The position numbers and the translations under genes were made by a program. From the NCBI GenBank assembly GCA_009841005.1, contig VXMR01000022.1, positions 1 to 50,956 of the forward strand: 50,956 nucleotides of DNA. The letters run 5' to 3'. Of this stretch, positions 29,963 through 40,233 are shown piece after piece. Numbering within the stretch: the first letter of the stretch is position 1; each line of letters opens with the position of its first letter. This DNA comes from Gemmatimonadales bacterium. Lineage in GTDB: Bacteria; Gemmatimonadota; Gemmatimonadetes; Palauibacterales; Palauibacteraceae. The notes under the pieces were generated by a model, which saw only the letters and a program-made list of their open reading frames with translations, was not told the DNA's origin and did no database searches.

Positions 29963-32900
29963 GTGACTCTCAACGTAGTTCGAGCGCCGGCGGCGGCCCC
30001 GCTGTGGGAGGGGTGCGTCGACCGTTTTCTGGCACAGGCCGCCTCATCGGCCGAGGCGGGCGCGGGGGCTGGCGCGTGGATCTGGCTCAACCACCGGAGC
30101 CTGCGGGATCTCCTGTTCGAGGCCGCGCATGAACGCGGCCTCCCCGGCTGGCTCGATCCTCCCGTTACGCTGTTCGGAGAGCTGACCGACCGTTTCGGTA
30201 TCCGGGAGAAGTCCGTCGGGCTCCTCACGCGCCGCCGGCTCGTGAGCCGGCACGCGGCGCGGCTGGGGCAGCGGATCCTCGGGCGGGAGCCCGGCCGCGG
30301 GGACGGCGTGATCCGCGGACACATGCTCGACCGGCTGTTCGGCGACCTGCTGCCGGAGGGCGTACCGCCGGACGAGTTGGAGCGGGCGCTGGCCCGGCTG
30401 GGCGGCGACGACTTCGCGCGCCGCCGCAACGACTGGGCTGTGGCCGTCTACCGCGCGTATCTCGCTGCGCTTGAGAAGCGCGGGTTCCTCGACCGGCGCT
30501 CGGTGAACGCCCGCATCGCGGAGCGGATCGAGGCGGGAGGACTGGCGGCGGCGATCGGCGGCGCCCGGGAATTGCACGTGTACAGCATCGCGAGCCCTCG
30601 AACGCGCCGACGCATGCTTGAGGCCCTCTCCCGTCAGGAGGAGGTGGACGTCCATCTCTACCTCCCGTCCGAATCGGAGCCTGACCGCTTCTTTGACGAA
30701 CTCGCCGACCGGACCGAGGTGATCGGCGTCCCCCGCGATGGCGGCGAAGATGGTGGGGGCGGTGCCGGGGCCGGGGCCGGGCCGGTGACGGTACAGCCGG
30801 TTCCGGATGCCGCGCGGGAGATGGCCTGGGTGGCACGGCAGGTCAAGGAGATTCTCGCGGCGGGTACCGCGGAACCGCATCGGATCGCCGTCGTCGCGAG
30901 GTCGGGTCGCGAGAACACGCATCGCGCGTACCGGGCGCTGCGGCGGGCGGGCGTCTCCGCGACGGCTCGCATCCGGACGCCGCTGGACGAGGTCCCGGCG
31001 CTCAGAGCGCTCCTCCTCGTGCTGCGGGGCGTCGGGCGGAACTGGGACTACCGGTCTCTGCGCGCCCTCCTCGCGCACCCCTACTTCGACACCCGCGTCG
31101 ATCTGCGCAGCATCGACGCCATCGCGGCGCTCCGGCGCGTGGTGGGGCTCGAGAGCTGGACCGGTGCCCTCGAGCAGTTGCGTCCGCTCGTCGAGAACAA
31201 GGCGCGCGAGGTCCGCGGACGGGGGCTCTTCCTCGATCGCGTGGAGAAGGACATCGAGGCCTTCGGCGCCTTGCGAGAGGTGCTCGATCCGCTCGCCGAC
31301 GCCCGCTCCGAGGCGGATTGGATCGACCTCACGCTCGCGCTCCTCGGGGAGGATCGCGGCCTGTTCCGGCTGAGGCGCCGCGTGTGCGACCCGGTCGAGG
31401 AACGGTGGGAGGTCGTGCGCTCCGACCAGCGCGGAATCCTTCTCCTGGAACGACTGCTGCGGGAGTGGAGGGAGCTCGACCACCCGGACGACCCGCTCCC
31501 GCCGGCGGGGTGGCACGCGCTGCTCGGCAAGCTGTTGCAGGCGAACGAACTCGTCCTCTCGACTCCCGGGCAGAAGGGCGTCCAGGTGCTGGAGGCGCAC
31601 GACGCGGCGCTCGTGCCCTTCGCCCATACCTTCGTCGTGCATGCGAACGACCGCGAGTTCCCCCGCGCCGGGGGCGCCACGGGCGTGTTCACGGACACGG
31701 AGCGCCGCCGCCTCGCAGCTCTCGGGTTGCCGCTGGCCCACCGGGACGAGACGCTGCGCCGCGAGCGGGGCCTATGGCGCGCGGTCACGCAGCAGGCCGG
31801 CCCGGTCTGCATCAGCTACCGCACCACGGACGCGGGCGGCACGCCGCTCCTTCCGTCGCTCATGGTCCCGAGTCACGAGGACGCCGCTGAGCTGCCCCGG
31901 ATCCGTCGCCCCTCGGACGAGCTCGACCCCGTGACCCCGGCCGAGGCGGACCGGCGGGCCGCCTTCGCGATCCACAGGGCTCTCGGGGTTCCGGACCCGA
32001 CGGAACGGCCGCGAATCGCGCCCGCCCGCCCGGAACGCGTCGCGCGTGCGATCGTGGCGGCGGCGGCCGAGATCCACCGCGGTCCGGGACTCGAGCGCTA
32101 TCCCGGATTCCTCCTTCCGGCGCCAGCGCCGGGCCCTGGGAGGGCCGTGCACCCGGCCTTTCGGCCGAATCCATGGAACGGCCACCTGCGCGATCCGGAT
32201 GTGATCCGGGAACTGGAGCGTCGCTTCCACGACGACTATCGATGGTCCGCCGGCCAACTCGAGGCCTACGCCCGGTCTCCCTTCACCTTCCTCGTCGAAC
32301 GCGTGCTCTGGCTGGAAGGCGTGGAGGAGGCGGAGGAGGAGACGACGCCCCTCACCTTCGGCAGCGTCGCGCACGAGATCCTCGAACGCTTCTACGCCGA
32401 GTTCATGGAGAGGCTTCCCGTCGCCCTGGAGGCGTCGGTCGAGCACCGCCTCGCGGAGATCTCCGATGAAGTCTGTGCCGAGCGCGCGGAGAAGGGGGAG
32501 TGGCTCGGCGTCGCCAGCCTGTGGGAGCAGACCCGGGAGGGGATCGTCGCCGCCGTCCGCAACTACATCGAGTGGGAACTCGGACACATGGCCAGGAAGG
32601 GCGAGTGTCCCATCGAGACCGAGGTCGGGTTCGGCTTCGACGACGAGCGTGCGATGCTCGCGGGCACCGACATCCGCGGCCGCGCGGCCCGCCTGCGCAT
32701 CTGCGGCCGCATCGACCGGCTCGACCGGGACGCGGGCGGGACCGGGGTATTTCACGTCCTCGACTACAAGAGCGGCAAGCCCCCGCCGGCGCCGAGATTC
32801 GATGACGCGACCGCCCTGCAGGGGGTGCTCTACGCGCAGGTGATGGCCGACCGGGGCTACGCGATGGGCAGCTGCCGGTACCGGTCCATCAGGAGTCCCG

Positions 32901-33130
32901 GGAGTCCTCTCAACGGAGGGCTGGTCAGATTCGGAGAGGAGCGGTACGAGCGGGCGCTCACAATGGCGCTCTCCATCCCCGCCCGCGTGCGGGCCGGGTG
33001 CTTCGAGGCGGTCGTCTCGCGGAAGGGGGATTGGTGGTCCTGGGATCCGCCTCGCGAGGTGCGCCGCAGCGACGCCCAGCTCGCCGAGGGCCACCGCTTC
33101 GACGACTTCGGAGACGTCGCCGGTGGCTGA
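29963..33130 (+). CDS. addB: AddB/RexB-like subunit of a helicase-nuclease (PD-(D/E)XK nuclease)
   Basis: A 1055-residue protein. The N-terminal half follows the AddB-type helicase-like fold but shows no GKT Walker motif, so it should not hydrolyse ATP. The C-terminal third is a RecB-type nuclease: LTFGSVAHEILERFY, then GRIDRLD and the catalytic LDYKSGK, then a QGVLYAQV helix. AddB proteins often bind an iron-sulfur cluster through cysteines flanking the nuclease; the corresponding YARSPFTFLVERV stretch has Ser where Cys is usual, so the cluster is probably absent. It starts at GTG 29963 and overlaps the AddA-like gene by 8 bp. The pair should process double-strand DNA ends for recombination. 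Confidence 0.85.
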   Translation: MTLNVVRAPAAAPLWEGCVDRFLAQAASSAEAGAGAGAWIWLNHRSLRDLLFEAAHERGLPGWLDPPVTLFGELTDRFGIREKSVGLLTRRRLVSRHAARLGQRILGREPGRGDGVIRGHMLDRLFGDLLPEGVPPDELERALARLGGDDFARRRNDWAVAVYRAYLAALEKRGFLDRRSVNARIAERIEAGGLAAAIGGARELHVYSIASPRTRRRMLEALSRQEEVDVHLYLPSESEPDRFFDELADRTEVIGVPRDGGEDGGGGAGAGAGPVTVQPVPDAAREMAWVARQVKEILAAGTAEPHRIAVVARSGRENTHRAYRALRRAGVSATARIRTPLDEVPALRALLLVLRGVGRNWDYRSLRALLAHPYFDTRVDLRSIDAIAALRRVVGLESWTGALEQLRPLVENKAREVRGRGLFLDRVEKDIEAFGALREVLDPLADARSEADWIDLTLALLGEDRGLFRLRRRVCDPVEERWEVVRSDQRGILLLERLLREWRELDHPDDPLPPAGWHALLGKLLQANELVLSTPGQKGVQVLEAHDAALVPFAHTFVVHANDREFPRAGGATGVFTDTERRRLAALGLPLAHRDETLRRERGLWRAVTQQAGPVCISYRTTDAGGTPLLPSLMVPSHEDAAELPRIRRPSDELDPVTPAEADRRAAFAIHRALGVPDPTERPRIAPARPERVARAIVAAAAEIHRGPGLERYPGFLLPAPAPGPGRAVHPAFRPNPWNGHLRDPDVIRELERRFHDDYRWSAGQLEAYARSPFTFLVERVLWLEGVEEAEEETTPLTFGSVAHEILERFYAEFMERLPVALEASVEHRLAEISDEVCAERAEKGEWLGVASLWEQTREGIVAAVRNYIEWELGHMARKGECPIETEVGFGFDDERAMLAGTDIRGRAARLRICGRIDRLDRDAGGTGVFHVLDYKSGKPPPAPRFDDATALQGVLYAQVMADRGYAMGSCRYRSIRSPGSPLNGGLVRFGEERYERALTMALSIPARVRAGCFEAVVSRKGDWWSWDPPREVRRSDAQLAEGHRFDDFGDVAGG

Positions 33131-36100
33131 GATCCGGTGGACGCCCGAGCAGGTGCGGGCGATTCGGTCGGAGGACGACACGTTGCTCGTTGCGAACGCG
33201 GGCACGGGAAAGACGACGACCGTCGTGGGCAAGATCATGTGGCGGCTGGGCCTTCCGTTCGGCGTGAATGGGGAGACGGGAGAACCGCTCGCGCCGCCGG
33301 CGGTCTCCTGCCGGCTGGACGAGATCGCCGCGATCACGTTCACGGAGAAGGCGGCCTACGACCTCAAGCGACAGCTTCGCAAGCGCATCGAGGCATCTCC
33401 GCGTGCGGACGACCTTCGCTGGGACATCGACCGCGCCTCGGTCGGCACAATCCATTCCTTCTGTGGCGAATTGCTGCGCGAACACGCCCTGCGGCTCGGG
33501 ATCGACCCCACCTTCGAGATCCTCGATGAGGACGAGGCGTGGGCGGAACAGGACGACCTGATCAAGGCGCTCCTGCTCGAGCGGCTGGACGAGGAAGACC
33601 CCGCCGCGCAGCGGCTCCTGCGACGCTGGAAGCTCACCGGGTGGCAGCACTCCAAGGGGGCGATCGACCACGTACGGGACGTACTGCGTGACCTCCGCTG
33701 GCGGGAACAACGATACGCAAAGTGGCTCCGCGGCGACCCGCCGCCGGAGACCGGCGACACGCTCGACCTGTTCCCGCACGAAGGCCCCGGCCTCGACCTG
33801 CCCGTGCTGAGGACCCTGTGCAGGGAGAGTGAGGCCAGCGACGAGGAAGCGCTCGCGATCTGCGCGGACCTCGTCGAACTGGGCCTCGAGGCCCGCGCGC
33901 GCTGGGACGCATGGCTGGAGGAAGAAAACCGGCGCGATTTCGACAGCCTGGTGCTCGGCGCGGCCGACCTCCTGGCCGGCCCCGCGGGCGAGGCCGCGCT
34001 CGCCGCGATCCGCGACCGCTACCGGATCCTCATCATCGACGAGTTTCAGGACACCGACTTCACGCAGCGCGACATCGCCTTCGCGATCGGGCGCGGCGTG
34101 GATCGCCCGCAGCTCTTCCTCGTCGGCGACCCGAAGCAGAGCATCTATCGCTTCCGCGGCGCGGATATCTCGGTCTGGAACGCGGTCGCCGACGATTTCG
34201 CCGAGAGCGGCGAGATCCTCGACCTCCCGAGGAACTTCCGCAGCGCTCCACCGATCGTCGACTTCGTGAACGTCGTCGGCCGCGTCTCGATGGACGAGAC
34301 GGGCCGCGCGCTCGCGGAGGAAGAGCTCCCGAGCCGGATCGACTACGCCGAGCTCGTGGCCGGCGTGCCCGACCATGCGCAGACCGGCGTCGAGTGGGTC
34401 TGCGCTCAGGGGAAAAACGTCGCCGAACGCCGGGAAGCCGAAGCCGTTCGCATCGCGTGCCGGATCCTCGCCTCGGTGGGCCGCGACGAGGTCCGCGACT
34501 CCGACAGCGGCGAGCTTCGCCCGCTCGCGTTCCGCGACATCGCCGTCCTCTACCGCGCCCGCACCGGCATCGGGCATGTCGAGACGACGCTCAAGCGCTA
34601 CGGCATCCCCTACTTCGTCTCCGGGATGGCGCACCTCGGCGAGCGCCAGGAGATCCTCGATGTCCTCAACGCGCTGCGCCTGCTTCAGAACGAGCGCGAT
34701 GACGTGCGGGCCTTCGGCTACCTGCGCTCGCCCTTCGTGGGTCTCCGGGACGAGACGATCGCCCGCATGCACATGCTCCAGCGGTCCGGGCCGCTGCTCC
34801 GCCGCGCGAAGCGGTGGCTGGCGGAAGGGGAGTGGCCCAAGGCTCCGGACCATCCGGAACTGACCGGCATCGAGCGGGGCGCGCTGGCGCAGGGTCTCTC
34901 GGTGCTCGACGATCTGCGCCAACTCGCGCCGCGGCTCGCGCTGGACGAGATCATCGAGGAGTTGCTCGAGCGTACCGGATATCGTCTCCACGTCCTGCTC
35001 ATGGAGGGCGCGGAGGAGGTTCTCGCGAACCTGCAGAGCCTCATCCACTTCGCGGAATCCCATCGCGCCAGCGACCTCTCCACCTTCTTCGAAGTGTGGG
35101 ATCGATCAACGAACCGGGAAATCGGACTTCCGCAGGCCCCGCTGTACTCGAAGGAAGACGATGTCGTCACGCTCTCGACGGTCCACCAGGCGAAGGGGCT
35201 GGAGTGGCCGCTCGTCTTCCTGATCCGCGTCGAGCGGAAGCTCTGGACCCCCCGTACGAACGAGTACTGGTCCGATCCCGAACTCGGACCCCTGTTCTGC
35301 CTCAAGGCGTCCGACCGGGGGGCGCGGGGCCACCGCATCCTGCGTCGCGAGGAACTCGAAGCGACGGCCGAGGAAGCCCGCCTCCTGTACGTGGCCGCGA
35401 CGCGGGCCCGGGACCGGCTCGTCCTTGCGGGACCGAAGGAGGGCAAGGGCTACGACCGCTGGCTCGTCGAGGGGGAGGCTCCCGAGCGGGGTGATCCGGC
35501 CGCGCGCGCCGCCCCGGAGACGAGCCGACCCCCGACGCTCGCGTGGCTGGACGGATACGAGGTCGCCGAGCCCCCGGCGCTGATCCAGCCGCTCCCCGAG
35601 CCGCCGTTGCGCTGGACCCGATCGGCGACCGAACTCATGCTCCTGGAAGAGGATCCGGAAGAATGGGAGCGCCGGTACAGGCACGGCGCCCTCGCCCCAT
35701 GGCACTTCGCGCCCGAAACCTCGGCGCAGGAGACGGGACTCCCGGCCCTGGTCCGGGGCCAGATCATCCACGGCGTGCTGGAGCGGCTGGAGGCGGAGGC
35801 CGAGATCGCGCGCGTCGTCGAAGAGACCATCGGTTCGCTGGACGAGCCCGAACTCGAGGCCATGCTTCGTCCGGGGAGCGAATACCGCGAGCAACTGGAG
35901 GATGAGATCCGCCGCGTGGCGGCGAGCGAGGAGTGGGCCTGGTACACGGAGGGCGACCTCGGACGCGACTACTGGAAGGAACTCACCTTCACCCACCTCG
36001 TGGGAGCGCGGGATTGGCGGTTCGGCGCCTTCGACCTGTACCGGCGCCTCCCCGGCTCCGGCGCCGCCCCGGACCACGGCACCCCGCCCTCCTTCCTGGC

Positions 36101-36323
36101 CGGAGCCCTCGGCCTGAAGGAGGGACTGGACGCCCTCGTCATCGATTTCAAGACGCACGACATCACGGCGCCCCAGGCACCGCACGCGGCGCGCAGCTAC
36201 CGGATCCAGGCCGACGTGTACCGGGCGGCCGCCTCGAGCATGGCCGGCCGCGTCGCCGTCGGCCTGCACTTCACCCACCCCAACGCGCTCGTCCCCATGC
36301 GCAAGAAGCCGGATCCGACCTGA
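33123..36323 (+). CDS. addA: AddA-like UvrD/Rep helicase with C-terminal nuclease domain
   Basis: A 1066-residue superfamily 1 helicase, the ATPase subunit of an AddAB-type complex. Helicase motifs in order: ANAGTGKTTTV (Walker A, near residue 25), ITFTEKAAYDLK, GTIHSFC, LIIDEFQDTDF (Walker B), VGDPKQSIYRFRGADI, LPRNFRS, LSTVHQAKGLEWPLVFL and LYVAATRARDRLVL. The C-terminal nuclease has VIDFKTH followed by a YRIQADVY helix. The GTG at 33123 overlaps the end of addB, indicating coupled synthesis. It acts with the preceding gene in end resection. Confidence 0.92.
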   Translation: MAEIRWTPEQVRAIRSEDDTLLVANAGTGKTTTVVGKIMWRLGLPFGVNGETGEPLAPPAVSCRLDEIAAITFTEKAAYDLKRQLRKRIEASPRADDLRWDIDRASVGTIHSFCGELLREHALRLGIDPTFEILDEDEAWAEQDDLIKALLLERLDEEDPAAQRLLRRWKLTGWQHSKGAIDHVRDVLRDLRWREQRYAKWLRGDPPPETGDTLDLFPHEGPGLDLPVLRTLCRESEASDEEALAICADLVELGLEARARWDAWLEEENRRDFDSLVLGAADLLAGPAGEAALAAIRDRYRILIIDEFQDTDFTQRDIAFAIGRGVDRPQLFLVGDPKQSIYRFRGADISVWNAVADDFAESGEILDLPRNFRSAPPIVDFVNVVGRVSMDETGRALAEEELPSRIDYAELVAGVPDHAQTGVEWVCAQGKNVAERREAEAVRIACRILASVGRDEVRDSDSGELRPLAFRDIAVLYRARTGIGHVETTLKRYGIPYFVSGMAHLGERQEILDVLNALRLLQNERDDVRAFGYLRSPFVGLRDETIARMHMLQRSGPLLRRAKRWLAEGEWPKAPDHPELTGIERGALAQGLSVLDDLRQLAPRLALDEIIEELLERTGYRLHVLLMEGAEEVLANLQSLIHFAESHRASDLSTFFEVWDRSTNREIGLPQAPLYSKEDDVVTLSTVHQAKGLEWPLVFLIRVERKLWTPRTNEYWSDPELGPLFCLKASDRGARGHRILRREELEATAEEARLLYVAATRARDRLVLAGPKEGKGYDRWLVEGEAPERGDPAARAAPETSRPPTLAWLDGYEVAEPPALIQPLPEPPLRWTRSATELMLLEEDPEEWERRYRHGALAPWHFAPETSAQETGLPALVRGQIIHGVLERLEAEAEIARVVEETIGSLDEPELEAMLRPGSEYREQLEDEIRRVAASEEWAWYTEGDLGRDYWKELTFTHLVGARDWRFGAFDLYRRLPGSGAAPDHGTPPSFLAGALGLKEGLDALVIDFKTHDITAPQAPHAARSYRIQADVYRAAASSMAGRVAVGLHFTHPNALVPMRKKPDPT

Positions 36324-36328
36324 CCACC

Positions 36329-36541
36329 GGTGACGGTTTCCTGGCGTTTGGCGCTCATCGTGAAACGATTCGCAAATCCGTGAAGTGTTTTTGACGCCCA
36401 GCGGCCAACTTGCGAGCTTTTCTCCCGCATCGAGAAAATCGTGAAAGGTTTCTTGCGTTTTGCCAGATTTGTGATAGTTTTCGGCGTTCCGTGACGGTTT
36501 TCTTGCGAGAACGGCAACTCTGTGAATTATGCGGTTTCTCC
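36329..36541 (+). repeat. Low-GC array of phased degenerate repeats upstream of the Fic gene
   Basis: Seven copies of a degenerate motif, roughly CGTGAAGGTTTTCTTGCG, begin at 36329, 36359, 36379, 36440, 36470, 36490 and 36521. The steps are 30, 20, 61, 30, 20 and 31 bp, close to whole helical turns. The pattern repeats itself after 111 bp, and bases 36329-36439 align with 36440-36550 (shared blocks include GGTTTC near the start and TTTCTCCC near the end), so an older 111-bp duplication is nested on the short repeats. TTTTCTC/GAGAAAA (36418-36424, 36432-36438) can form a hairpin. The base composition is near half GC, unlike the flanks. No start-to-stop frame of note lies in it. It is probably an operator or promoter array for the Fic gene. 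Confidence 0.7.
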
Positions 36542-36542
36542 C

Positions 36543-38060
36543 ATGAGCTTCCGATGGCGGCCTCCAGAACCCGCGCAACCTGCGGGTTACGCTGCGCTCA
36601 TTGCCCGGCACGACCTTGAAGTTCCGCTACCGCCACGGATGGCTGCCATCGCCAAGCGTCATCGTCCCGCCTCGACACGCGAGTGGCTGTTGCTTCCTCC
36701 CGGCCACGCCCCGGAGGAGAGTCTTCGAGGACACCTGGAGTTCGCTTTGAAGTGGGAGGGCGTGAGTTTGGGGGTGCTCTCCGCCCTTTTTGGGAAAATC
36801 GACCCTCGCGAGATCGTCCGTATCGTGCGTGACACGCCGACGGGCGCTTACGCTCGCCGCATCTGGTTTCTGTATGAATGGCTGACGGACAAACCTCTGG
36901 GCCTCCCTGAAGCCGCAAAAGTGAAGGCCGTTCCGGTGGTGGATCCAAAGCAACAGTTTGCTTCGGCGAGCGGCCCTCTCTCACGACGGCATCGTGTGCG
37001 CAACAACCTGCCCGGCACGAACCGGTTCTGTCCGCTCGTCCGGCGGACTCCCGAGCTTGAACGCTATTCGGACATGCGCCTCGGCGAGCAGGCTCAAGAT
37101 GTCGTTGGTCATACTCAGCCGGATATCATTCGCCGCGCCGCGTCGTTTCTACTCCTCGAGGACAGCCAGGCATCGTTTCAGATCGAAGGCGAGCATCCGA
37201 CGCCGGCCCGTGGGCTCCGTTGGGGCCAAGCGATCGGCGAGGCCGGCCAGCGAGACCTTGAGGTCGATGAACTGGAGCGCCTTCAGGAACTCGTGATCGG
37301 GGACTCGAGATTCGTCGAGCTCGGGCTCCGGACCGAGGGCGGGTGGATCGGCGAGCGCAACCGGGCGACGGGTGATCCGATTCCGGAACATATCAGTGCA
37401 CGTCCGGATGACCTGGCCGATCTCATGCGAGGAGTGGTCGAGTATGGCCGACGGACGGAACAGGCGGCCGTCGATCCGGTCGTATCGGCGGCCGTTGTGT
37501 CGTTCGGGTTCGTATACATCCATCCCTTCGAAGATGGGAACGGCCGCCTTCACCGCTGGCTGATTCATCACGTCTTGGCACGTGCCGGATATGACCCGCC
37601 TCATGTCGTGTTCCCCGTGAGCGTCCCCATGCTGAGGCGGATCTCGGAGTACCGTGAGGTGCTTCGCAGCTACTCCTCGCAGGTGCTGCCCCTGATCGAA
37701 TGGCGCGCGACGAGACGACACAACGTCGAGGTCCTGAACGAGACGGGCGACTTCTACCGGTTCTTCGACGCCACGGCCCACGCGGAGTTTCTGTATGGCT
37801 GCGTCGAGGAGACGGTGACACGGGATCTCCCCGAAGAAGTCGAATACCTGGAGCGGTACGACGAGTTCTCGCGGCGCGTCCAGGAGGAAGTGGCGGACAT
37901 GCCGGACCGGACGATCGACCTGCTGTCCAGGTTCCTGCGGCAGAATCGCGGCACGCTGTCGGAGCGGGCGCGCACCGGCGAGTTCGAGCGACTTACCGCG
38001 GATGAGGCGGAGCGGGTCGAGGCGCTCTATGCGAGTTGCTTTTCCGCAGAGGTCTCTTGA
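36543..38060 (+). CDS. Fic-domain protein (predicted AMP-transferase, class II-like)
   Basis: About 505 residues from ATG 36543; a GTG at 36522 is an alternative start, and neither has a Shine-Dalgarno. The N-terminal region has no recognised family beyond a helical linker (WFLYEWLTDKPLGLPEA). The Fic core carries HPFEDGNGRLHR (about residues 327-338), the canonical motif with catalytic His. About 115 residues earlier SFQIEG (211-216) matches the inhibitory [S/T]xxxE[G/N] motif, so autoinhibition within the same chain is expected. A helical C-terminal region follows. The enzyme should move AMP (or another nucleotide moiety) onto a target protein; the target is unknown. No antitoxin is adjacent. 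The start codon sits at the edge of the repeat array. Confidence 0.9.
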   Translation: MSFRWRPPEPAQPAGYAALIARHDLEVPLPPRMAAIAKRHRPASTREWLLLPPGHAPEESLRGHLEFALKWEGVSLGVLSALFGKIDPREIVRIVRDTPTGAYARRIWFLYEWLTDKPLGLPEAAKVKAVPVVDPKQQFASASGPLSRRHRVRNNLPGTNRFCPLVRRTPELERYSDMRLGEQAQDVVGHTQPDIIRRAASFLLLEDSQASFQIEGEHPTPARGLRWGQAIGEAGQRDLEVDELERLQELVIGDSRFVELGLRTEGGWIGERNRATGDPIPEHISARPDDLADLMRGVVEYGRRTEQAAVDPVVSAAVVSFGFVYIHPFEDGNGRLHRWLIHHVLARAGYDPPHVVFPVSVPMLRRISEYREVLRSYSSQVLPLIEWRATRRHNVEVLNETGDFYRFFDATAHAEFLYGCVEETVTRDLPEEVEYLERYDEFSRRVQEEVADMPDRTIDLLSRFLRQNRGTLSERARTGEFERLTADEAERVEALYASCFSAEVS

Positions 38061-39447: not shown

Positions 39448-40233
39448 ATGAATCTCAGCACACGGCTTTCCGCCGGACTGCCCGCCATCGTCCTCCTCCT
39501 CGCCGCGCCGGGAGCCGCGGCCGGCCAGACGGAGTTCCAGCTCCAGCTCGGCAAGCTGGTGAATCCCTTCTCGGATACGGGGCACGGGACGACGGTCGTC
39601 ACCTTCCAGAACGCGTCGCAGTGGTCGTTGGGCGACCACTTCATGTTCTTCGACTACACGGCGGACGGGGGGAACGACGGGTTCAACGAGAAGGACCTGT
39701 ACGGCGAGTGGTATCCGTCGCTGAGCCTGGGGAAGATCAGCGGGAGCCACGTCGGGTTCGGCCCGATCCGCGACTTCGCCCTGCTCGGTGGCGTGAACTA
39801 CGGCTCGCAGGCGAAGGTGCTGAAGTACACGCCCGGCCTCCGGGCGTCGTGGGACATTCCGGGGTTCATCTTCCTTAACACGGAATTCGCCCGCATGGTC
39901 GACGCCTCGAGCGGTGTGGACAACGGCGGTGCGCCAGCGACGGACGACGGCTGGATGTTCGACGTGAACTGGCTCGCGACGTGGGAGATGCTGGGGCAGA
40001 CGTTCACGTTCACCGGCCATGCGGAGTACATCAGCGCCGTGACGAACGAGTTCGGCGACGAGGTTCGCGCCTGGATTCTCGCCCAGCCGCAGCTGACCGT
40101 GGACGTGGGCCGGATCATGGGCGGCGACGGAGGTCGTCTCATGAGCGGGATCGAATACCAGTACTGGCGCAACAAGCTGGGGACCGACGTGTCGGAGAGC
40201 GTGGTCCAGTTTCTCGTCGTGTGGCGGTTGTGA
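39448..40233 (+). CDS. Outer-membrane channel, Tsx-like (nucleoside-specific porin family)
   Basis: A 261-residue protein with a signal peptide ending AAPGAAAGQ and a run of alternating amphipathic strands with an aromatic C-terminal strand (SVVQFLVVWRL), as expected for a 12-strand beta barrel. FQNASQWSLGDHFMFFDYT and NDGFNEKDLYGEWYPSLSLGKI match the Tsx/DUF5020 group, which lets nucleosides pass the outer membrane. It follows the purine permease in the same direction, supporting uptake of purine compounds. It overlaps the next gene as GTGA. Confidence 0.83.
   Translation: MNLSTRLSAGLPAIVLLLAAPGAAAGQTEFQLQLGKLVNPFSDTGHGTTVVTFQNASQWSLGDHFMFFDYTADGGNDGFNEKDLYGEWYPSLSLGKISGSHVGFGPIRDFALLGGVNYGSQAKVLKYTPGLRASWDIPGFIFLNTEFARMVDASSGVDNGGAPATDDGWMFDVNWLATWEMLGQTFTFTGHAEYISAVTNEFGDEVRAWILAQPQLTVDVGRIMGGDGGRLMSGIEYQYWRNKLGTDVSESVVQFLVVWRL

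What the first reader, a model, noticed from the sequence alone, without database searches (positions are those of the whole stretch)
36329..36541. Nested, helically phased repeat array in front of a Fic gene
Seven degenerate copies of about CGTGAAGGTTTTCTTGCG start at 36329, 36359, 36379, 36440, 36470, 36490 and 36521. Steps are 30, 20, 61, 30, 20 and 31 bp, so all copies lie on nearly the same face of the helix. A 111-bp unit (36329-36439) is repeated at 36440-36550, including the bases just before the Fic start codon. The tract is low in GC within a high-GC region. No feature of the neighbouring genes explains it. A cooperative operator or a phase-variable promoter for the Fic protein is the simplest reading.
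Basis: partly seen in the sequence, partly recalled or inferred. Interest (0 to 1): 0.72.

Follow-up and report, generated by a model that had tools for sequence, protein, structure and literature searches.

The report
Repeated operator switch for Fic gene
A bacterial gene for a Fic enzyme of a type listed as a candidate virus-defence protein is preceded by a row of short DNA repeats spaced about 20 or 30 letters apart, and the same kind of row sits in front of its relatives in many unrelated bacteria, which suggests that the enzyme controls its own gene by coating that row.

Summary
The array is real, with corrections. The "nested 111-bp unit" is not a duplication: outside the motif copies only 18 of 57 bases agree.

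The array goes with the Fic gene. In held-out tests 66 of 76 non-redundant relatives carry three or more copies, against 0 of 76 shuffles and 1 of 71 control stretches. Neighbouring copies lie about 20, 30 or 50 bp apart in 305 of 336 cases. In most relatives the last copies lie inside the coding sequence, with matching codon bias. A second Fic subfamily in the same host genus has a different motif at the same spacing, and so have some more distant relatives. No neighbouring gene of 90+ codons is conserved.

Best reading: a cooperative operator bound by the Fic protein, which represses its own gene. Binding, repression and the DNA-binding surface are inferred. Closest precedent: CccR, a Fic autorepressor that uses one inverted repeat. 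The literature searches made here found no such array described.

The parts
36329..36346 (+). operator copy 1 (GGTGACGGTTTCCTGGCG), 6 bp after the stop codon of the upstream helicase gene
   Evidence: held-out motif model 4.0 bits; sequence
36359..36376 (+). operator copy 2 (CGTGAAACGATTCGCAAA)
   Evidence: held-out model 5.9 bits
36379..36396 (+). operator copy 3 (CGTGAAGTGTTTTTGACG)
   Evidence: held-out model 10.8 bits; the repeat finder
   Evidence: aligned to TGTGATC... copies in four relatives; not found by the motif model
36440..36457 (+). operator copy 5 (CGTGAAAGGTTTCTTGCG)
   Evidence: held-out model 5.7 bits; the repeat finder
36470..36487 (+). operator copy 6, the strongest (TGTGATAGTTTTCGGCGT)
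   Evidence: held-out model 16.2 bits; nearly invariant in the genus
36490..36507 (+). operator copy 7 (CGTGACGGTTTTCTTGCG)
   Evidence: held-out model 4.7 bits; the repeat finder
36521..36538 (+). weak copy 8 (TGTGAATTATGCGGTTTC); its GTG at 36522 is a possible start codon of the Fic gene
   Evidence: conserved in the genus; not found by the motif model
36542..36559 (+). possible decayed last copy (CATGAGCTTCCGATGGCG) over the ATG at 36543; the place corresponds to the intragenic copy of homologues
   Evidence: inference from the homologues' sequences; many of them have copies centred inside the coding sequence, the window's own locus has none at the threshold used
36543..38060 (+). Fic gene (505 aa from ATG 36543, 512 aa from GTG 36522); FIC motif HPFEDGNGRLHR at residues 327-338; candidate inhibitory helix S211-x3-E215-G216; PADLOC family PDC-S24
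   Evidence: Pfam Fic 6.3e-12; PDC-S24 1.3e-190; invariant columns in 50 homologues
33123..36323 (+). upstream UvrD/Rep-type helicase gene (AddA-like by inference); its stop codon lies 5 bp before the array
   Evidence: Pfam UvrD-helicase 6.4e-44; ORF

Best explanation
The tract is the operator of the Fic gene: eight or nine degenerate direct copies of an ~18-bp site, in one orientation, about 20 or 30 bp apart, filling the gap between the upstream gene and the Fic start. The Fic protein, made from a single gene with no conserved partner, binds its own sites side by side and cooperatively and so shuts its own promoter and start region until it is needed. Shown here by comparison: the copies, their spacing, their constraint at the nucleotide level even inside the coding sequence, their exclusive link with this Fic gene in the genus, and the change of motif with Fic subfamily inside one host genus. 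Inferred: that the Fic protein is the binder, that binding is cooperative, and that it represses.
For: Held-out motif model finds the window's copies in register. Six-fold held-out test: three or more copies in 66 of 76 relatives, 0 of 76 shuffles, 1 of 71 control stretches. Cross-group test: model of one group on the other 2.6 hits per sequence against 0.25 in shuffles (n=52) and 2.38 against 0.27 (n=24). Steps of 19-21, 28-32 and 48-52 bp make up 124, 139 and 42 of 336. A motif-free self-match count peaks at offsets 20, 49, 50, 29 and 30 (73% of 200 matches) but not in control stretches (9% of 69, 4% of 75). Phe codons in the leader are TTT in 97 of 109 cases, in the rest of the gene 561 of 1821. 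Array pattern in 33 genomes: 12 of 13 hits in front of this Fic gene. Subfamily-2 Fic genes in the same genus carry the subfamily-2 motif learnt from other hosts and score 0 with the subfamily-1 model. No ORF family of 90+ codons recurs in more than 4 of 64 neighbourhoods. Precedent: CccR, a Fic protein that represses its own promoter through its DNA-binding domain (PMC9755527, abstract and passages).
Against: No binding or expression data. No Pfam DNA-binding domain in any of 50 members, and the C-terminal segment that lies where CbFic2 and SoFic have their HTH is net acidic here. The N-terminal domain only weakly resembles AbiEi-type antitoxins. No sigma-70-like promoter was found in 36200-36700. 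Under the pooled motif model the window's own locus is one of 8 of 76 with fewer than two hits; it is found by the model of the GTGA-type group, whose members I chose by eye. Five of 12 distant homologues show no significant array, though two of these five were scanned and are PDC-S24 as well. An unlinked regulator or a small partner gene under 90 codons is not excluded.
Confidence: 0.72

Rival explanations
1. The array is an operator, but for another regulator of the host (for example a CRP/FNR-type or other global factor), not for the Fic protein.
For: Many copies read GTGA-N7-TCAC, close to the CRP half-sites (recalled), as in L018, L053 and L055; no DNA-binding domain was identified in the Fic protein by Pfam.
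Against: Within one genus two Fic subfamilies have two different motifs, each matching its own subfamily in other hosts; distant subfamilies have quite different motifs at the same spacing; no neighbouring gene of 90+ codons is conserved; in 33 genomes 12 of 13 pattern hits lie at this Fic gene, so no wider regulon is seen with that pattern.
Confidence: 0.15
2. The repeats act as RNA, in the manner of type III toxin-antitoxin systems, where a transcribed row of repeats in front of the toxin gene neutralises the toxin.
For: A row of repeats of one orientation stands directly before a presumed toxin gene and may lie in its transcript.
Against: The tract folds no better than shuffles as RNA (z 0.59, 140 of 200 shuffles at least as stable); no Rfam match up to E 1 in 36200-36700; no terminator-like site between array and gene in that stretch; copies alternate between 20 and 30 bp steps and run into the coding sequence. 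Spacing in multiples of about 10 bp points to double-stranded DNA.
Confidence: 0.05
3. The repeats control translation or simply reflect a conserved leader peptide and A/T-rich start region; they are not binding sites.
For: The last copies overlap start codons and encode a conserved leader (FSGPVTVFQERRLPE in many homologues); start regions are often A/T-rich (recalled).
Against: Most copies lie upstream of the start, on a fixed 20/30 grid; leader codons outside the motif cores have a third-position G+C of 0.572 against 0.134 in the cores (partly circular, since cores were chosen by a T-rich motif); TTT usage of leader Phe codons is far above that of the gene.
Confidence: 0.06

Closest known systems
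CccR of Yersinia pseudotuberculosis (PMC9755527; abstract and passages seen)
   Same: Fic protein that binds its own promoter and represses its own gene.
   Different: CccR binds two inverted 10-bp repeats 26 bp apart through a C-terminal HTH; here there are eight or so direct copies 20/30 bp apart, and no HTH was identified with confidence.
CbFic2 and SoFic (class II Fic proteins; PMC10628234, abstract, section 6 and passages)
   Same: Best structural matches to the predicted Fic model (8cil Z 24.1, 300 residues, rmsd 3.9; 3zcn Z 23.3); N-terminal inhibitory helix; CbFic2 activity is changed by DNA binding.
   Different: No phased operator array is reported in the parts read; their C-terminal HTH has no clear counterpart here; this protein has an extra N-terminal domain of about 160 residues.
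AbiEi-type antitoxins, including Rv2827c (PMC3985639 passages; PMC7319586 abstract)
   Same: Weak fold resemblance of the Fic N-terminal domain (1zel Z 6.8, 6y8q Z 4.2); autorepression of a toxin gene at repeated sites, with cooperativity.
   Different: AbiEi proteins are separate antitoxins with an N-terminal wHTH and use inverted repeats; here the domain is part of the Fic protein and the sites are direct repeats.
PADLOC PDC-S24, a candidate anti-phage family (name; 'phage defence candidate' is recalled)
   Same: The protein matches the profile over its length.
   Different: The profile says nothing about a cis array; no paper with the term PDC-S24 was found.
Plasmid iterons (recalled)
   Same: Direct repeats of about 20 bp in helical steps, bound by the product of the adjacent gene.
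   Different: Iterons serve replication initiators; here the gene is a Fic enzyme and lies mostly on chromosomes.

Membership tests
PDC-S24 (PADLOC) | full-length match to profile PDLC04966 | tested here: met
   E 1.3e-190, profile 4-491 of 497; 50 of 50 members of alignment A1
PDC-S24 (PADLOC) | protection against phages | not testable with these tools
   no experiment
class II Fic AMP-transferase | FIC motif HPFx(D/E)GNGRxxR | tested here: met
   HPFEDGNGRLHR; H327, P328, D331, G332, N333, R335, R338 invariant in 50 sequences
class II Fic AMP-transferase | inhibitory helix (S/T)xxxE(G/N) N-terminal to the Fic core | tested here: met
   S211 and E215 invariant, G216 at least 90% in 50 sequences; lies before the Pfam Fic match; motif as given in PMC10628234 section 6 and recalled
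class II Fic AMP-transferase | AMPylation activity | not testable with these tools
   no experiment
CccR-type Fic autorepressor | C-terminal HTH DNA-binding domain | tested here: inconclusive
   whole model aligns with CbFic2 to residue 502 but no HTH profile matches and residues 451-505 are net negative
CccR-type Fic autorepressor | operator of two inverted repeats | tested here: not met
   no inverted repeat in 36200-36700; copies are direct
CccR-type Fic autorepressor | autorepression | not testable with these tools
   inferred only
AbiEi-type antitoxin | C-terminal antitoxin fold | tested here: inconclusive
   Foldseek 1zel E 0.33 and 6y8q E 1.0; Z 6.8 and 4.2; Pfam AbiEi_1 in 1 of 50 members at E 0.13
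AbiEi-type antitoxin | paired inverted repeats as operator | tested here: not met
type III toxin-antitoxin RNA array | structured RNA repeats in front of the toxin gene | tested here: not met
   RNA fold z 0.59; no Rfam match up to E 1
CRP/FNR operator | TGTGA-N6-TCACA palindrome read by one host factor | tested here: not met
   window copies lack a TCAC arm; motif differs between two Fic subfamilies in one genus; consensus recalled

The most novel reading that the evidence does not exclude
The array is more than an operator: it is a DNA scaffold on which many Fic molecules assemble in a slowly winding row. Held there they silence their own gene and are kept in the inactive (or deAMPylating) state. 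When the row is disturbed, for example by phage-driven breakdown or takeover of host DNA, both the gene and the enzyme are released together, so that the array is the sensor of a one-gene abortive-infection system. The spacing rule is kept because it sets the geometry of the assembly, while the site sequence drifts with the protein.
Probability: 0.12. Interest if true: 0.88.

Novelty: new variant of a known kind. Interest (0 to 1): 0.7.

Why it matters
Solitary Fic toxins need tight control, and for the SoFic defence protein the trigger is described as unknown (PMC12249575, passages). A cis array that keeps its spacing while its sequence drifts with the enzyme would give a widespread candidate-defence family (149 plasmid records with a relative, besides the chromosomes) a concrete control element that can be tested with one purified protein and one DNA fragment. 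It also offers natural sets of matched protein and site variants for working out how the protein reads DNA.

Tried and rejected
Nested 111-bp duplication: rejected. Phase-variable promoter by slippage: not supported, copies too degenerate. RNA antitoxin array: no structure, no Rfam match. A genome-wide repeat: the tract occurs once in the own genome, and its consensus with two mismatches gave 4 hits, 3 of them in the tract. Conserved partner gene: none of 90+ codons (shorter genes were not looked at). Sigma-70 promoter scan: nothing; many homologues do have TGTGATAATAT-like sequence inside a copy, but I did not test it as a promoter.

The groups were set by eye. Rows dropped: of 96 loci with at least 50% identity, L016 and L044 for short upstream sequence and 16 near-duplicates, then L028 and L071 as truncated or misaligned starts, leaving 76. 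One search used 75 and one search used 71 of these (start codon rule). The distant set is 9 plasmid records that I chose from the 30 listed of 149 and 3 genome loci.

Domain search: Foldseek with the N-terminal domain alone gave no match at E 0.001. Tandem Repeats Finder did not see the tract. No match in the phage collection at E 1e-10. Literature: searches in the open-access library found no description of repeat arrays at Fic genes of this family; preprints and most subscription papers are not in it.

Full report
Observation. The tract 36329-36541 fills the gap between a UvrD-type helicase gene (stop codon at 36321-36323) and a Fic gene (GTG 36522 or ATG 36543 to 38060). A motif model trained on 21 relatives outside the genus, without the window, peaks at 36329, 36359, 36379, 36440, 36470 and 36490 in register; 36521 is not found by it. 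Aligning four relatives of the genus shows a further, decayed copy at about 36411 in the 61-bp step and at least two extra copies upstream in the relatives. The consensus-free count is 6 against a maximum of 5 in 500 shuffles. The 111-bp unit fails as a duplication: 33/54 identical bases in motif copies, 18/57 outside. Single sites are not rare in the window (15 plus-strand and 13 minus-strand places at 5 bits or more, 4 in the tract), so the evidence is in clustering, register and conservation.

Who has it. The genome is a Gemmatimonadota MAG close to Candidatus Palauibacter (named relatives L036, L037). The tract occurs once in it. In 33 relatives a two-copy pattern gave 13 hits: 12 in front of this Fic gene in the five genus genomes that hold it intact (G000, G001, G008, G010, G011) and one elsewhere in G013; reversed-pattern controls gave none. 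Ninety-six loci encode a relative of at least 50% identity with readable context; after removal of short, duplicate and misaligned rows 76 remain. They come from Gemmatimonadota, Acidobacteria, Alpha-, Gamma- and Deltaproteobacteria and others by record title. In six-fold held-out tests 75, 68 and 66 of 76 have at least one, two and three copies; shuffles 23, 2 and 0 of 76; stretches 800-1100 bp upstream 18, 2 and 1 of 71. Eight of 76, among them the window's own locus and L007, have fewer than two hits under this pooled model; they are GTGA-type arrays and the group model finds the window's copies. Two plasmid records outside the training set, Rhizobium leguminosarum WSM1325 and Sphingomonas sp. 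JE1, show 4 and 7 hits, with steps of 20, 32, 49 and of 29, 20, 32, 29, 20 (plus one of 96).

Spacing. Pooled neighbour steps (n=336) are 19-21 bp in 124, 28-32 in 139 and 48-52 in 42 cases. The best common period is 10.0 bp (0.843), with 10.5 at 0.794, a small difference. A motif-free count of self-matches shows peaks at 20, 49, 50, 29 and 30 (73% of 200) in the 76 sequences, 9% of 69 in upstream controls and 4% of 75 inside the gene. Multiples of about ten bases point to a protein layer on double-stranded DNA. With B-DNA at 10.5 bp per turn the copies creep round the helix.

Nucleotide-level constraint inside the gene. With the most downstream ATG taken as start, 67 of 75 relatives have at least one copy centred inside the coding sequence and 49 at least two (motif model not held out). 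Phe codons in this leader are TTT in 97 of 109, in the rest of the genes in 561 of 1821. Third-position G+C is 0.134 at motif cores, 0.572 at other leader codons and 0.69 in the rest (the core value is partly circular). So the repeat is kept as DNA, not as peptide. The window's own locus has no copy inside the gene at that threshold.

Motif follows the protein. A second subfamily (about 40% identity) has the motif TAATCGTTTTtCCACc in eight loci outside the genus, at steps of 20-21 (5), 30 (6) and 50 (1). In the window's genus, subfamily-2 genes of G004 and G007 score 1 and 2 hits with that foreign-trained model and none with the subfamily-1 model; subfamily-1 genes score 2, 4 and 3 with the subfamily-1 model trained outside the genus and 0, 1 and 0 with the other. 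Of 12 more distant homologues, 7 have significant self-matches at the 20/30/50 offsets (0 of 300 shuffles reach them), some with quite different motifs (L149 TCGATTTTCGATG, L150 TGGCxxAxxGxTCAG); 5 (L151-L155) do not. Because one host genus holds two motif types that each match their own Fic subfamily elsewhere, a single host regulator is unlikely, and with no ORF family of 90+ codons recurring in more than 4 of 64 neighbourhoods the Fic protein is the simplest binder. Smaller partner genes, such as the 47-residue AS1 of Sofic (PMC12249575, passages), would have been missed.

The protein. It matches Pfam Fic (6.3e-12) and PADLOC PDC-S24 over its length (1.3e-190; 50 of 50 aligned members; 6 of 6 distant ones scanned). 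FIC motif and inhibitory S-x3-E-G are invariant or nearly so in 50 sequences. The AlphaFold2 model has mean pLDDT 93.9 and matches CbFic2 best (Z 24.1, 300 residues, rmsd 3.9), then other Fic proteins. The N-terminal 165 residues, folded alone (pLDDT 93.4), resemble Rv2827c (Z 6.8) and AbiEi (Z 4.2) weakly, with no Foldseek match at E 0.001. No Pfam DNA-binding domain matches. The DNA-binding surface is therefore open.

Mechanism. Proposed: Fic protein made from this gene binds its copies side by side, covers promoter and start, and holds its own level low; loss of bound protein or disturbance of the DNA releases the gene. Shown: array, spacing, constraint, linkage, motif change with subfamily. 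Inferred: binder, cooperativity, repression, trigger. Precedents are CccR autorepression at one inverted repeat (PMC9755527, abstract and passages), DNA-dependent activity of CbFic2 (PMC10628234, abstract, section 6 and passages) and AbiEi-type autorepression at repeated sites (PMC3985639 passages; PMC7319586 abstract).

Verdict. A real, conserved cis array, most likely a cooperative autoregulatory operator; a new variant of a known kind. The array as sensor and store of an inactive Fic assembly is the boldest reading not excluded.

Noticed in passing
L131 (genome G118, same species), around 1480-1500; window 36423-36675: A conspecific genome has a 242-bp deletion between imperfect 11-bp repeats (window 36423-36433 and 36665-36675) that removes the later copies of the array, the start and about the first 41 codons of the Fic gene; an open frame of 477 codons remains. 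Whether it is expressed is unknown.
   Followed up: partly
L151:830-2332 (Deinococcus psychrotolerans plasmid): A Fic relative of this family lies between the S and R genes of a type I restriction system; in L150 (Bosea) it stands two genes after a DNA cytosine methyltransferase.
   Followed up: no
window 36543-37037: The N-terminal domain of the Fic protein weakly resembles the fold of AbiEi-type antitoxins, so the protein may be a Fic enzyme fused to an antitoxin-like domain.
   Followed up: partly
window 29963-36323: Two overlapping genes, a PD-(D/E)XK nuclease protein and a UvrD-type helicase, look like an AddB/AddA pair directly upstream of the array.
   Followed up: no
window 39448-40233: A 261-aa ORF downstream of the permease gene matches no Pfam family.
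   Followed up: no
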